Shown here piece after piece: positions 3 to 8,421 of a DNA stretch of 8,421 nucleotides; the stretch's first letter is position 1, and each line of letters opens with the position of its first letter. The DNA is from Desulfobacteraceae bacterium. Lineage in GTDB: Bacteria > Desulfobacterota > Desulfobacteria > Desulfobacterales > Desulfobacteraceae. Both the position numbers and the translations under genes were made by a program. The notes below the pieces were generated by a model that saw only the letters and a list, made by a program, of their open reading frames with translations, ran no database searches and was not told where the DNA came from. The DNA lies in contig JAFLJU010000121.1 of assembly GCA_022712835.1 (NCBI GenBank), positions 1-8,421 of the forward strand. The letters are read 5' to 3'.

Positions 3-293
3 GAAGGCAAAACTGTTCCGACCTCTTACCTTATGTCGACGTTCCGGGATATTTTCAAGACGCGCACCATAAATCCAAACAATAGTAGCGGCCATCATTG
101 AGAAATTAATGTGATTAATGACGGCATGAGCATTGCGGGTTTGGCTTTTACTACTGCCTATCTCCTGCTTGATTTCTTTGAACCCGGATTCAATTTTCCA
201 CCTGGCACCGTAATACTCGATGATTTGTTTAATTGACAAATCCAAATCAGTTGAGAATAAAGCAACCCATTGGGTCTTTCGATATACCCATAC
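3..293 (-). pseudogene. Transposase, C-terminal part (continues past the left edge)
   Basis: The minus-strand frame through 287-3 encodes 95 residues that continue the transposase of 715-1644. It reads VYRKTQWVALFSTDL, then YGARWKIESGFKEIK, a perfect Y-(2)-R-(3)-E-(6)-K signature of IS4-superfamily transposases. The Glu of this signature is the third catalytic residue (E343 in the rejoined protein). An RNAHAVINHI segment and a basic tail follow, still open at the window edge. The frame is open up to a TGA at 327-329, but codons upstream of 287 (294-326) belong to the inserted element and the duplicated target. There is no start codon with a ribosome site, so this piece is not expected to be translated on its own. 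Confidence 0.85.
288..293. repeat. Target-site duplication, left copy (CCATAC)
   Basis: CCATAC here is identical to 715-720 and directly abuts the TGTAGA end of the 421-bp element. A seventh base, T, also matches, but the symmetric element ends favour 6 bp. On the minus strand it reads GTATGG, two in-frame transposase codons (Val-Trp). Confidence 0.8.
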
Positions 294-318
294 TGTAGAT
301 TGTCGTTTTCCAATCCCA
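294..318 (+). repeat. Terminal inverted repeat, left, of the 421-bp element
   Basis: It starts TGTAGATTGTC and matches the reverse complement of 690-714 at 18 of 25 positions, including the first six, TGTC at 8-11, and ATCCC at 20-24. Confidence 0.8.
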
Positions 319-434
319 AAAAAATGTCACGATTTTTTACCAAAATCTGGCCTTTTTCGGGAAATTTCTATGCGGCACCTTATACATTTTTAAGTGAGAT
401 TTCTTAGGTACCGGAGAGCGGTAGCAAAAAGGCT

Positions 435-520
435 ATAACATACTGATTTGTAAAGAAAAAAAATTCTCATGCTTTTTTACCAAATCCCACTTTACAATTT
501 CATCATTTTTTTTATGTTAT
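435..520. repeat. Nested inverted repeats inside the 421-bp element
   Basis: ATAACATA (435-442) pairs perfectly with TATGTTAT (513-520). Inside that, TTGTAAAG (448-455) pairs with CTTTACAA (490-497). The four arms lie in the right order for one interrupted hairpin about 86 bases long, as expected of a foldable non-autonomous element. Its function is unknown. Confidence 0.5.
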
Positions 521-547
521 GTATCTTGAAAAATCCCCCCCTCTTAT

Positions 548-563
548 CCCCCCAAAAGGGGGG
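548..563. repeat. C6-A4-G6 hairpin in a C/G-tract repeat
   Basis: This is a perfect 6-bp G/C stem with an AAAA loop, preceded by a further run of seven C at 535-541 (AAATCCCCCCC). The C-tract / spacer / C-tract / G-tract layout resembles small intergenic repeats often seen in Desulfobacterota and environmental genomes. That resemblance is from memory and not checked. No T-run follows the stem on either strand in the right place, so it is not called a terminator. Confidence 0.5.
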
Positions 564-643
564 AGGAAAATAAAAGGCATAGGGCGGTTCCTGCTATCTG
601 CAAAAAACAAGGGTATTTTTAGTCTTTAAATACTGTACCTATA

Positions 644-677
644 AAAATCCCATTTAGGTATGCGCATCTGGGATTTT
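644..677. repeat. 9-bp inverted repeat near the right end of the element
   Basis: AAAATCCCA (644-652) and TGGGATTTT (669-677) are perfect inverted copies with a 16-nt loop. The arms are A/T-flanked on both sides, so a transcript in either direction would form a hairpin ending in U's. It could weakly terminate transcription in either direction. Confidence 0.45.
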
Positions 678-689
678 AGACTGGATTTT

Positions 690-714
690 AGGGATCTAAG
701 AAAGACACTCTACA
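690..714 (-). repeat. Terminal inverted repeat, right, of the 421-bp element
   Basis: Read on the minus strand it starts TGTAGAGTGTC. It supplies the premature stop (TAG/TAA region at 688-690) that ends the interrupted transposase. Confidence 0.8.
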
Positions 715-720
715 CCATAC
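715..720. repeat. Target-site duplication, right copy (CCATAC)
   Basis: This second copy of CCATAC directly abuts the TCTACA end of the element. It corresponds to transposase codons V309-W310, the last native codons before the insertion. Confidence 0.8.
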
Positions 721-1653
721 TACCCGGACAGGGCATTTCAGTGTTTTTAGCATGACTACAGTAGAATAAAACATGACCTCACGATAATCGCCATAAAGAA
801 ACACGCTAAGTTTTGAGGCTTGTGATCTGAACATAGCTGCCTCCTCAGAGCATGAGCCTAAACGATTTCCATACTTTCGTGTTCTGCCACGATGTCCTGG
901 TTTCCTTTTGGGTGCTATAGAGTATAGAACGGTATTGGAACGTAACCGTGAGAGCAAATTGAATAGACTGCCAATATGTCTTCTGGTGGGTTTGTACAGC
1001 CCGTTATTACCAAACCAGCTATCACAGACACACAAAATATTGATCCCTTTAATATGATGTGCCAGCTTAACTAACATATCTGCTGATTGTTCCAGCTTTG
1101 TTTTAAAGGAGGGGATTTTCCCGGCAATGTTCATATTATCGGATTTTGAGGTGATGGCTTTTAGTGGTAGATAAAATCTGTGGGAAAGGGGGAGGCATGC
1201 CCAACGGCCTTTTATGGATTTAAGCAAACCAAGGAGCACCACATTTTGCGCCCAAGGATATTTTGTCTGATTTGATTTTGCAGCATGGTCAAAAATGTGT
1301 GAACACCCAAAAATATTCTTGCCGGTTTTGGGGTTGATAGAATCATCCAGGGCAACCAGCAATCGTCCATCGGTTAGAGGGTCTGGAATAGTATCCCACA
1401 ATTTCACCCAGAGCTTATCCCAGGGCAGCTTATTCGATGCCATGAAAGTATAGAACCTTCGTTTATTAATATCGATTCCAAAAAAAATATGCATACAGCG
1501 AAGAATATTCGATGAGATGGAACTGGTAAAAGGTATAATGAATGAAAGCAGGGCATAGGTGAACCATCTACTCCGGTGGTTGCCAAGTTTGCTGGATGAA
1601 AATTCCTTCTGAAGGGGCTTTAGGATATCGCGTAAAATAAACATGAGATTTTA

Positions 1654-1933: not shown

Positions 1934-2275
1934 ATGATTAAGACTACGGCTATAATTTCAATTCACATATTTTCCCTGATGTGTTTTACAACCTTCACCA
2001 TCGCTGATGAAAAGAATCAAGAAGATCCGACCAAAATCATTACCAAGCTTGGTGCTGGCGACAATGATCAATTTACTTTTTCAGGTTCTATTGGTTTAGA
2101 CGAGGCACGAATGATTAACGCCCGTATCAATGATGATGCCAGCGAATGGCGCATCGGTGGTTCATGGTTATTTGATTTCGGTATCGTAAATTTTAACGTT
2201 AACCGCAATGACCATAAGATGTTCAGAGTATCAATGATACCAGTTCAAATCTTGATGAAATTTTTAAAGAGATGA
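1934..2275 (+). pseudogene. Truncated exported protein, probable outer-membrane beta-barrel remnant
   Basis: The frame encodes 113 residues. Residues 1-24 form a signal peptide: a Lys at position 3, a hydrophobic core IISIHIFSLMCF, and likely cleavage after TIA before DEKNQ. Residues 30-94 are rich in alternating polar/hydrophobic stretches (FTFSGSIGLDEARMINARIN, EWRIGGSWLFDFGIVNFNVN), typical of an outer-membrane beta-barrel N-terminus. After about residue 94 (NDHK) the character changes to MFRVSMIPVQILMKFLKR and stops, which looks like a frame change or deletion junction, since barrel proteins of this kind are normally several strands longer. The ATG is the first after an in-frame TGA (1919-1921), and only a weak distant AGGA precedes it. 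It converges on glgB. I cannot name the family and cannot exclude a genuine short protein. Confidence 0.5.
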
Positions 2276-5925: not shown

Positions 5926-8421
5926 CTAACGATTTTCTAACAACTTGTGCATCACCCTTGCTACCTCACTGGTTCCCCAGGCCTGGGCATCGCATCCCCG
6001 GGGGGTATGGGGAAAATTCCCATCCAGTATTTCAGGAATATAGCCTGCTGCCCCTTTTCTCATCAGTCCCATCACACTGCCAAGCCAGGCCAGACAGGTG
6101 GGATGGCTGGAAATACCAAAGGCATTTGCCCAGGCCTCACAAAATACCGGGAACTGCCAGGTCCAGGCAGTGCCGTTATGATAGGAAGGTTTTCTATTTT
6201 TATCCTCATCCCCTTTGTATTCCCCTGAATAGGGGTGGTGGGGGTCGTTTAACAAGTGACCCTGGTGATAAACTGGAAGGGGGGTTTCCATCCTTCTGTC
6301 TGCCAGGCTTCGTATCCCTCCGGGAACCAATAGCTCCTGACAAGTTTCTACACATTTTTGGGCAATCACTTTGTCTTCTATCACCCCCAGGGTGAATAAA
6401 AACAATTGATTGGGTCGCAGGGCATCATCCGGGATTGCGGCTTTGGCACTGCCAGGCCCCTCTGAATGGAGGCAATCTGAAAAAAAGCCAGATTTCTCCC
6501 TCCAGAACAGCTCAAAAATATGGGTTTTAACCGTTTCTGCCCGGTTCTGCCATATGCGTTCATCGGCACCTGGGCTTTGACTGTCAAGGATGTCCAGGGT
6601 GTCAAGGAAGCCCAGGGCATTATGCCATAAGGCTTGTATTTCAACGGGATACCCTTTGCGGGGAGAGCCTGCAGGAAAATTGGTGTCCATCCATGTAAAA
6701 TGAGACGGGCTGTAAAGCAGCAGGGTTTCGGGATCTGCCTTCACGCCGGTGGGCGTCCCACTGATTAAAGAGTTTGCAATGGAAAAAATAATCTGTTTGA
6801 TGGTTCGTCCCCCAAGAACTTCATCTAAAAAATCCCGATTCCCCTCACTTGCTGCCAAATCCTTACAACATGCAAAAAACCACAGGGGGGCGTCCGAGGT
6901 TTCAACATTCTTTGCATCCTCCCCGCAGATCATATTGGGCAGGGTTCCGTGATTTTCAAACCGCCCGAACAATCTTAAGATGGCTTTTGCATCCGAATAC
7001 CGTTTCAATTCAATCAGGCTTCTGCAAAAGATCAGACTATCCCTTCCCCAGTCCAGAAACCAGGGGTATCCGGCCACCACACTCTTGTCATTGCCACGGT
7101 GGACCAAAAATGTGTCCAGGCTTTTGTAAACAGCCTCGGACAAGGGCATGCCCCGTTCAAAGGATTTAAGTTCCGGATAGGGTATTGAAAAATCGACCAC
7201 ACCCGTTTGTCCCTGATGCTCACTGACAACGACTATGAGTTGTTCACTGACTGCCGCAGTGAGTTGTTCACTGACTGCCGCAGTGAGTTTCAAAGGATCG
7301 CCTCCCTTGCAGGAAACCGTAAAATATCCCGGGCTGAAAAGGTCGGATTCCGGGTCAAGACCCCGCTGGGCTTCCAGGGGCCGATACACCATATACTGCC
7401 ACTCAGGTGCCGGCACAAATTCCCCCCTGGAGATAAAAACCCTCAATTGTTTCTGGCTGGCAAGGGTAAAAACAAATCCGTTTTTCAACGGCCGGATGGC
7501 TGCGGGCCAATCCTTTTCAGGCCCGGCAAAGGCCTTAACCGGCTCATGAAAACTTCGGTCTTCAATATCCGGTCGGATGATCAGATTCACCTCTTTATCA
7601 TCACTGAGAAATGCGGGTACATTTGGGTTTGCCTGGCTTCTCACAAGGGTCATCCGGACGATATTTTCTTGAGGATCAATGGACAGGTGGAGCTCCAAGG
7701 CATAATATTTGCCGTCCGAGGTGGGAACATGAAACAGCCATTTACCGCCCTGGTCGTAGGAAAAAGAAAAGGTTTCAAGACAATCTGCTGTCAGCTCCCG
7801 TGAATACCCCTGGTAAATTGCCCAGATTCTGCACCTGGAGAAAACCATCCACCGGTTCTCCGGCAGGGTCGGGTCCATATTTGCCCCGAGAAATCCATCA
7901 TAGCGGCTGTCCAATCGACCCCACCAGGCCGCCGCTCTCATCATTCCCCCACGGCGGGTGGTGCCCAACAATTTTAAAAACGGGGTGTTAACGATCTCCT
8001 TTCGCGTAAAGGTCGACCGCATATACAGGGCATCAAAAGGCGCCAGATATAATAAGGAAACTTTTGATACCTGGGTCCCCTTTGGATCAAAGATCCTGAG
8101 CACCAGGATGTAGTTCTGATGATTTTTTTTGGGCGTTTCCCCGGGGAAAAAAAGTGCAAAAAATCCTGTTTTATCCGGAAAGGCAAGTCCCTCTTCATAT
8201 CCCAGGGATGTTTTCACGCCTTTAGTGTCATCTAAAATTTCTGCCCGGAAGCCTGATCTGCACCGAACCAACAGAAAAAACCCAGCTGGCACCATCAATT
8301 GTCGTTTTACATCTCGTTCAACATCCAACAACACCACCCGGCTTTCCTTTGAATCCCGGTTAAAGGACCGGATGAATTCTATTGGATCACGGGCAAAAAC
8401 AGACGCCTCCTGTTCCACATC
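5926..8421 (-). CDS. Glycogen debranching enzyme, GH133 type, 5' end outside the window
   Basis: This amylo-alpha-1,6-glucosidase removes alpha-1,6 branch glucose from glycogen and acts in the cytoplasm with GlgA and GlgB. At least 832 codons are visible. The GTG at 8418 could start it, but the frame is open to the edge (Asp codon at 8421-8419) and there is no visible ribosome site, so it is treated as partial. Residue numbers are from that GTG. Residues 1-130 form a beta-rich domain. Residues 140-375 match the central sugar-binding GDE N-domain (GFLGANMDPTLP at 175-186). Residues 376-401 are a repeated linker. Residues 425-830 are the (alpha/alpha)6 catalytic domain: WFLDWGRDS (453-461), TLPNMICGEDA (492-502), TSDAPLWFF (507-515), YHNGTAWTWQFP (746-757), and EILDGNFPHTPRGCDAQAWG (796-815). 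The N-terminal beta domain resembles one that follows a GH13 domain in larger fused bacterial enzymes, so an amylase domain may lie upstream. It ends 15 bp before glgA. Confidence 0.88.
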   Translation of the reverse strand, partial: DVEQEASVFARDPIEFIRSFNRDSKESRVVLLDVERDVKRQLMVPAGFFLLVRCRSGFRAEILDDTKGVKTSLGYEEGLAFPDKTGFFALFFPGETPKKNHQNYILVLRIFDPKGTQVSKVSLLYLAPFDALYMRSTFTRKEIVNTPFLKLLGTTRRGGMMRAAAWWGRLDSRYDGFLGANMDPTLPENRWMVFSRCRIWAIYQGYSRELTADCLETFSFSYDQGGKWLFHVPTSDGKYYALELHLSIDPQENIVRMTLVRSQANPNVPAFLSDDKEVNLIIRPDIEDRSFHEPVKAFAGPEKDWPAAIRPLKNGFVFTLASQKQLRVFISRGEFVPAPEWQYMVYRPLEAQRGLDPESDLFSPGYFTVSCKGGDPLKLTAAVSEQLTAAVSEQLIVVVSEHQGQTGVVDFSIPYPELKSFERGMPLSEAVYKSLDTFLVHRGNDKSVVAGYPWFLDWGRDSLIFCRSLIELKRYSDAKAILRLFGRFENHGTLPNMICGEDAKNVETSDAPLWFFACCKDLAASEGNRDFLDEVLGGRTIKQIIFSIANSLISGTPTGVKADPETLLLYSPSHFTWMDTNFPAGSPRKGYPVEIQALWHNALGFLDTLDILDSQSPGADERIWQNRAETVKTHIFELFWREKSGFFSDCLHSEGPGSAKAAIPDDALRPNQLFLFTLGVIEDKVIAQKCVETCQELLVPGGIRSLADRRMETPLPVYHQGHLLNDPHHPYSGEYKGDEDKNRKPSYHNGTAWTWQFPVFCEAWANAFGISSHPTCLAWLGSVMGLMRKGAAGYIPEILDGNFPHTPRGCDAQAWGTSEVARVMHKLLENR
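7217..7288. repeat. 24-bp tandem repeat, three copies, in the debranching gene
   Basis: Two perfect 24-bp copies (7241-7264 and 7265-7288; the unit begins TGTTCACTGACTGCC) follow a diverged third copy (7217-7240, about 17 of 24 matching). In frame they encode LTAAVSEQ, LTAAVSEQ and LIVVVSEH (residues 378-401), so the unit keeps the reading frame. The position is just before the catalytic domain. The perfect identity of two copies points to recent slippage duplication. Confidence 0.9.

What the first reader, a model, noticed from the sequence alone, without database searches (positions are those of the whole stretch)
288..720. Nested transposition: a 421-bp MITE-like element inside an IS transposase, with exact frame-restoring ends
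Inverted ends TGTAGA...TCTACA (18 of 25 matches), flanking CCATAC repeats, and a rejoined frame (GTA TGG | GTA TAT CGA AAG) give three independent proofs of one insertion event. The element has no gene, so it must be mobilised in trans. I do not recognise its family. It may be an undescribed non-autonomous element in this lineage.
Basis: seen in the sequence. Interest (0 to 1): 0.75.

Follow-up and report, generated by a model that had tools for sequence, protein, structure and literature searches.

The report
Transposon-derived miniature element inside an IS
A 421-base gene-less mobile element has jumped into the transposase gene of another mobile element; relatives of it sit in many copies in another sulfate reducer's genome next to a three-gene transposon with matching ends that probably moves them.

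Summary
Window 294-714 is a 421-bp gene-less insert with inverted ends (18 of 25) and a CCATAC duplication, inside an IS701-like transposase. Of 3,155,815 start/length combinations in the window it is the only one with a 6-bp repeat and ends that good. Rejoining the flanks gives one frame with no gap at the junction against six intact homologues.

It is a MITE, and its family and likely driver were found. That transposon encodes a DUF6431-like protein, an IS481-like DDE transposase and an AAA ATPase; genomes near the window's host carry relatives of it. A second genome (G052) has five related MITEs.

The MITE interior is absent from the G069 transposon. A GC hairpin is the transposon's most conserved DNA and is kept in the MITEs. 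Trans-mobilisation is inferred. No near-identical copy was found; the window's own genome is not held. New member of a known kind.

The parts
288..293 (.). left copy of the 6-bp target duplication CCATAC
   Evidence: longest matching flank is 6 bp
294..714 (+). 421-bp MITE (AAA-gene-side end first, ORF1-side end last, by comparison with the three-gene transposon)
294..318 (+). left terminal repeat; element 1-50 aligns with the AAA-gene-side end of the three-gene transposon (74-80% in three comparisons)
690..714 (-). right terminal repeat; aligns with the ORF1-side end of the three-gene transposon
344..533 (+). MITE interior (element 51-240): 79% identical to the G069 MITE interior, no match in the four G069 autonomous copies apart from a 15-bp chance-level one
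534..599 (-). conserved hairpin segment, upstream of ORF1 in the three-gene transposon
548..563 (.). hairpin core CCCCCC-AAAA-GGGGGG
318..344 (+). first copy of an imperfect 27-bp internal repeat (possible protein-binding site, not tested)
458..484 (+). second copy of that 27-bp repeat, 85% identical
715..720 (.). right copy of the 6-bp target duplication CCATAC
715..1644 (-). first part of the interrupted IS701-like transposase gene (its listed frame runs on into the element, to 688)
3..293 (-). second part of the interrupted transposase gene, cut by the window edge

Best explanation
The 421-bp stretch is a miniature inverted-repeat element whose ends are recognised by the DDE transposase of a three-gene transposon (DUF6431-like protein, IS481-like DDE transposase, AAA ATPase). 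The transposase, probably with its ATPase partner, pairs the two ends, cuts or copies the element and joins it to target DNA with a 6-bp stagger; repair leaves the 6-bp duplication. Here the target was the gene of an unrelated IS701-like transposase, which is thereby broken. Shown: insert, ends, duplication, restored frame, a multi-copy related family with the same duplication length, and a transposon with matching ends living in the same genome as that family. Inferred: that this transposon's proteins move the element, that the ATPase is needed, and the cut-or-copy chemistry.
For: Insert, ends, duplication and restored frame. Family: 12 identical 430-bp copies in G069 at 12 places, 11 of 12 with exact 6-bp duplications, the twelfth with 4 bp. 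Partner: four 3,026-3,027-bp copies in G069, 99.8% or more identical, carrying three genes and the same kind of ends; their duplications are 6, 6, 7 and 4 bp. Ends: element 241-421 is 78% identical to the ORF1-side end in G006 and element 1-48 is 81% identical to the other end in G069. Of 27 loci tested, 12 carry matches to all three genes, including loci of G001, G005, G006, G019 and G020, whose GlgA is 86-92% identical to the window's. Second family: five copies in G052, 2 of 5 with exact 6-bp duplications.
Against: The window's own genome is not held, so no partner was seen in the same genome as this copy, and no near-identical copy was found. Between the window element and the G069 MITE identity is 82% over 1-302 but only 53% over 307-421. 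3 of 5 G052 MITE copies and the complete element in G006 have no exact duplication. The G052 transposon copy that was opened has its transposase gene split, so an intact driver there is not shown. Need for the ATPase is not tested.
Confidence: 0.92

Rival explanations
1. A simple internal-deletion remnant of one three-gene transposon, not a separate MITE lineage.
For: Both ends and the hairpin segment match the transposon.
Against: The interior (element 51-240) matches none of the four G069 transposon copies beyond a 15-bp chance-level match, yet is 79% identical to the interior of the 12 G069 MITEs; part of it (180-240) is also shared between the G069 and G052 MITEs at 74%. Deletion remnants formed separately would not share an interior that the parent lacks.
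Confidence: 0.06
2. The element is moved by another, unseen transposase that recognises TGTAGA ends (for example a plain single-gene IS481 element).
For: 6-bp duplications are the commonest length in IS481 (passage in PMC10045372), so end type and duplication length alone do not single out the three-gene transposon.
Against: In G069 the transposon's ends match the MITE's over 36-67 bp and the hairpin segment at 95%; I did not search G069 for other IS481-type elements.
Confidence: 0.06
3. Not an insertion: the stretch is native to this transposase, or chance produced the repeats.
For: None found.
Against: Six intact homologues run through the junction without it; only one such arrangement in 3,155,815 combinations; related copies elsewhere with their own duplications.
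Confidence: 0.01

Closest known systems
Bacterial MITEs in general (review PMC10969869, passages seen)
   Same: Under 500 bp, inverted ends, no transposase gene, direct repeats, several copies in a genome, likely moved in trans.
   Different: Partner is a three-gene transposon with an AAA ATPase; the searched passages of the review do not mention IS481, IS21 or Tn5053 parents (0 occurrences each) and mention Tn7 only for its target site and in the reference list.
IS481 family (PMC10045372 and PMC6794481, passages seen)
   Same: Transposase of the partner is closest to the IS481 model (NF033577, 166 bits) and 6-bp duplications are the majority in IS481; TnRErm46 also makes a 6-bp direct repeat.
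   Different: Score is below the model's cut-off of 224; the partner has three genes; no CTAG target as in TnRErm46; duplications here have varied sequence.
Unnamed DUF6431 - DDE transposase - ATPase gene trio (plasmids pBB2 of Cupriavidus necator N-1 and pGS18 of Geobacillus stearothermophilus)
   Same: Same three genes in the same order; transposase 32-35% identical.
   Different: Annotated gene by gene, not as a transposon; ends there were not looked for.
Tn552, Tn5053/Tn402, Tn7, Mu (recalled, no call beyond weak matches to TnsB)
   Same: DDE transposase of the integrase type plus an ATPase; TnsB is among the weak matches of the partner's transposase (E 7e-5).
   Different: No sequence match of the ATPase to a solved TnsC or IstB; no TniQ- or TnsD-type gene seen in the 3.03-kb copies.
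TIMEs, Tn3-derived miniature elements (listing only)
   Same: Miniature derivatives of a multi-gene transposon rather than of a simple IS.
   Different: Other transposon family.

Membership tests
MITE | short (typically under 500 bp) and without a transposase gene | tested here: met
   421 bp, longest open stretch 60 codons
MITE | terminal inverted repeats and flanking direct repeats | tested here: met
   18 of 25 and CCATAC twice
MITE | several copies in a genome | tested here: inconclusive
   12 copies of a relative in G069 and 5 in G052; the window's own genome is not held
MITE | shares ends with an autonomous element | tested here: met
MITE | moved by that element's transposase | not testable with these tools
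   needs a bench test
IS481 family (for the partner) | transposase reaches the curated IS481 model cut-off | tested here: not met
   166.4 bits against a cut-off of 224
IS481 family (for the partner) | integrase-type DDE core | tested here: met
   rve 44.6 bits, cut-off 32.6
IS481 family (for the partner) | 6-bp target duplication (majority of the family) | tested here: met
   2 of 4 transposon copies at 6 bp, others 7 and 4; 11 of 12 G069 MITEs
Tn7/Mu/Tn552-type transposons (for the partner) | AAA ATPase gene next to the DDE transposase | tested here: met
   AAA_22 53.6 bits, cut-off 27; gene order
Tn7/Mu/Tn552-type transposons (for the partner) | ATPase related to TnsC, TniB or IstB | tested here: inconclusive
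   sequence search of solved structures found only ABC transporter P-loops; no fold comparison was run
DUF6431 (ORF1 of the partner) | reaches Pfam's gathering score | tested here: not met
   22.0 bits against 26.6 in G069; 21.0 in L086

The most novel reading that the evidence does not exclude
A long-lived MITE lineage of several sulfate-reducing genera keeps its own interior but repeatedly takes on the right end and hairpin of whatever three-gene transposon lives in the same genome, by recombination at the conserved hairpin, so that it stays readable by the local transposase. The hairpin itself would be a cis-acting part of transposition, not only a guard of the ORF1 gene. In support: the window element follows the G069 MITE to position 302 (82%) and then drops to 53%, while its 241-421 part follows a Desulfobacula-type transposon end (78%); the G052 MITE and G052 transposon alone share the variant TAGTCAACCGCCC beside the hairpin among the 25 sequences I compared. 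Against: few families, the G052 and G069 hairpins differ little from others, and a global alignment gives only 77% for the hairpin between the window element and the G069 MITE.
Probability: 0.3. Interest if true: 0.6.

Novelty: new member of a known kind. Interest (0 to 1): 0.4.

Why it matters
It gives a gene-less element from one read of raw sequence a family, a probable driver and a testable pair of ends. Miniature partners of transposons that use a DDE transposase together with an AAA ATPase are natural minimal substrates: they mark which end sequences suffice. The conserved hairpin, kept where no gene follows it, points to a cis-acting role that can be tested. It also shows that the ATPase genes of these transposons are filed in sources as secretion proteins (general secretion pathway protein A, ExeA), a labelling trap for genome annotation.

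Tried and rejected
Exact 18-base end pattern in viral contigs: 2 contigs, neither with an element. A 23-base interior pattern and a hairpin pattern there: 0 each. Rfam on the window: 0 matches at gathering score. MITE against plasmids: no match. Hit of element 202-240 in G008 (E 6e-4): lies inside a 1,012-codon open frame, taken as chance. Short hits of 24-34 bp to the G069 MITE in other genomes of the order (for example G094, G115, G157, G197, G291, E 5e-5 to 1e-3) were not followed. G-quadruplex reading of the hairpin's G runs: the strict pattern is in 7 of 8 transposon copies and the G069 MITE but not in the window element or G063a, so not claimed. A structure prediction of the ATPase was not run. 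A suspicion that TnRErm46 of Rhodococcus equi was the same kind was dropped after reading passages: one IS481 transposase, CTAG target. The Pandoravirus paper that came up with Desulfobacula and MITE names a Desulfobacula sequence only among those aligned for the possible partner of another element, Submariner (passage).

Limits of the searches: 7 candidates per genome were scored in the 86-genome searches and 2 per genome in the 389-genome search, so copy numbers there are lower bounds and weak matches can be missed. In one search I compared 25 sequences of my choice; loci of G016, G021, G056, G070 and G086 with partial hairpin matches were left out. In one search the right ends of G005 and G020b were not trimmed exactly, G019, G020a and G004a were not cut at or do not reach their AAA-side ends.

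Full report
What is there. Window 294-714 is a 421-bp stretch between two copies of CCATAC (288-293, 715-720), with ends that match at 18 of 25 positions in inverted order. Among 3,155,815 start/length combinations in the window, 1,319 have a 6-bp direct repeat and only this one also has ends matching at 17 or more of 25. The stretch has no open frame above 60 codons. It splits an IS701-like transposase gene: NF049999 matches profile 2-284 on one side and 304-381 on the other. With the element and one CCATAC left out, the frame is 405 codons to the window edge and aligns, with no gap at the junction, to six intact homologues of 449-461 aa at 52-58% identity. These six were taken from a search in which 13 of 86 genomes matched.

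Where it comes from. The neighbouring genes are glycogen genes; the GlgA protein is 92% identical to that of a Desulfobacula metagenome-assembled genome (L001). The window's own genome is not held. A search of 20 genomes of relatives with the element found matches in 10. Most cover the right part only (element about 241-421), one (G008) is a chance match inside a long gene, and none covers the whole element. A search of 86 genomes of the family found matches in 26; only one, G069, matched element 1-302.

The family. In G069 (main contig 4.82 Mb), 40 of 42 candidates were scored and 20 matched: 12 MITE copies, and the two ends of 4 longer elements. The 12 MITEs are identical over 430 bp and each lies at its own place; 11 of 12 have an exact 6-bp duplication, the twelfth 4 bp. 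Identity with the window element is 82% over 1-302 and 309 of 431 columns overall. In G052, one search gave 14 matches: five MITEs of 94-100% identity and nine hairpin-only matches. Two of those five have exact 6-bp duplications. A search of 389 genomes of the order with the G069 MITE found matches in 43; beyond G069 and G052 they cover the hairpin, an end, or short stretches. Only two candidates per genome were scored there.

The probable driver. The four longer elements in G069 are 3,026-3,027 bp, at least 99.8% identical to each other, with duplications of 6, 6, 7 and 4 bp. From the right end they carry ORF1 (166 codons, DUF6431-like but under the gathering score), ORF2 (403 codons, integrase-type DDE core, closest to the IS481 model but under its cut-off) and ORF3 (277 codons, AAA_22). 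Of 27 loci tested for the three proteins, 12 match all three, including loci of G001, G005, G006, G019 and G020, relatives of the window's host by GlgA. The element's first 50 bases align with the AAA-side end and its last 180 with the ORF1-side end of these transposons. The same gene trio lies on plasmids of Cupriavidus necator and Geobacillus stearothermophilus, 2 of 2 regions opened, out of 1,076 plasmid records with a transposase match, all under 60% identity. ORF2 also matches retroviral integrases and TnsB weakly in solved structures; ORF3 matches only ABC transporter P-loops there.

How it most likely works. The transposase of such an element, probably with its ATPase, takes the MITE's ends for its own and inserts it with a 6-bp stagger. 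Shown are the shared ends, the shared duplication length and the co-residence in G069. Inferred are the trans action, the need for the ATPase and the chemistry.

Two further observations. First, the interior (element 51-240) is 79% identical between the window element and the G069 MITE but matches none of the four G069 transposons beyond 15 bp; of the 156 loci held at that call it matched only the loci with G069 MITEs and the chance locus L091. The G052 MITE shares 180-408 of the G069 MITE at 74%; its interior aligns with the window element only in the three-way alignment. So the MITEs look like one lineage rather than separate deletion remnants. Second, a hairpin segment (window 534-599, core CCCCCC-AAAA-GGGGGG at 548-563) lies upstream of ORF1 in the transposons. 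In 7 of 7 comparisons with the G069 transposon it is the most conserved segment: 89-93%, against 67-88% for the coding regions present. All 25 sequences that I chose to compare keep a C6/G6 hairpin; they had been picked by similarity to it, so this is not an independent count. The G069 MITE hairpin is 95% identical to that of the G069 transposon. A global alignment gives only 77% for the hairpin between the window element and the G069 MITE, although each is 92-94% identical to the G069 transposon's hairpin.

Against the reading. No copy close to the window element was found, and no partner could be seen in its own genome. The right third of the window element differs from the G069 MITE (53% over 307-421). 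Three of five G052 MITEs, one of twelve G069 MITEs and the complete G006 transposon lack an exact 6-bp duplication. The opened G052 transposon copy has a split transposase gene.

In print. Searches of the held library for Desulfobacula with MITE, for DUF6431, for Desulfobacula toluolica with transposase, for IS481 with AAA ATPase and MITE, for TnsC/TniB/IstB with MITE, for TnRErm46 with IS481, for Tn552, and for Desulfobacteraceae with MITE gave no paper whose listing describes this MITE or the gene trio as a transposon. I saw listings only, except passages of PMC10969869, PMC6794481, PMC10045372 and PMC4495683. ISfinder was not available, so a named entry there cannot be excluded.

Verdict. 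It is a new member of a known kind, with a better defined partner than most, and with a conserved hairpin that deserves a test.

Noticed in passing
G052 contig C1, L135 (3778500-3783000): The three-gene transposon copy opened in G052 has its DDE transposase gene split: residues 1-58 and 54-259 lie about 1.7 kb apart, as if another insertion sat inside.
   Followed up: no
window 7225-7290: Short in-frame repeat in the glycogen debranching-type gene: the 24-base unit around agttgttcactgactgccgcagtg occurs about twice to three times (LTAAVSEQLTAAVSEQLIVVVSEH in the protein).
   Followed up: no
window 1934-2275: A 113-codon frame with a signal-like start and no Pfam or NCBIfam match, possibly a broken gene beside the IS.
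   Followed up: no
G005 contig C101, L163: A stretch 89% identical to positions 322-404 of the G069 MITE without the rest of the MITE: possibly another miniature family's end.
   Followed up: partly
P0007, P0020, P0046 and others: ATPases of these transposons are named general secretion pathway protein A or ExeA by sources; some of the contigs they come from are about 3 kb, near the length of the transposon.
   Followed up: no
G069 and window duplications: The duplicated 6-mers vary but their middle two bases are mostly TA or AT (for example TTTAAT, CATAGG, CCATAC, ATATGG), a weak target preference.
   Followed up: no
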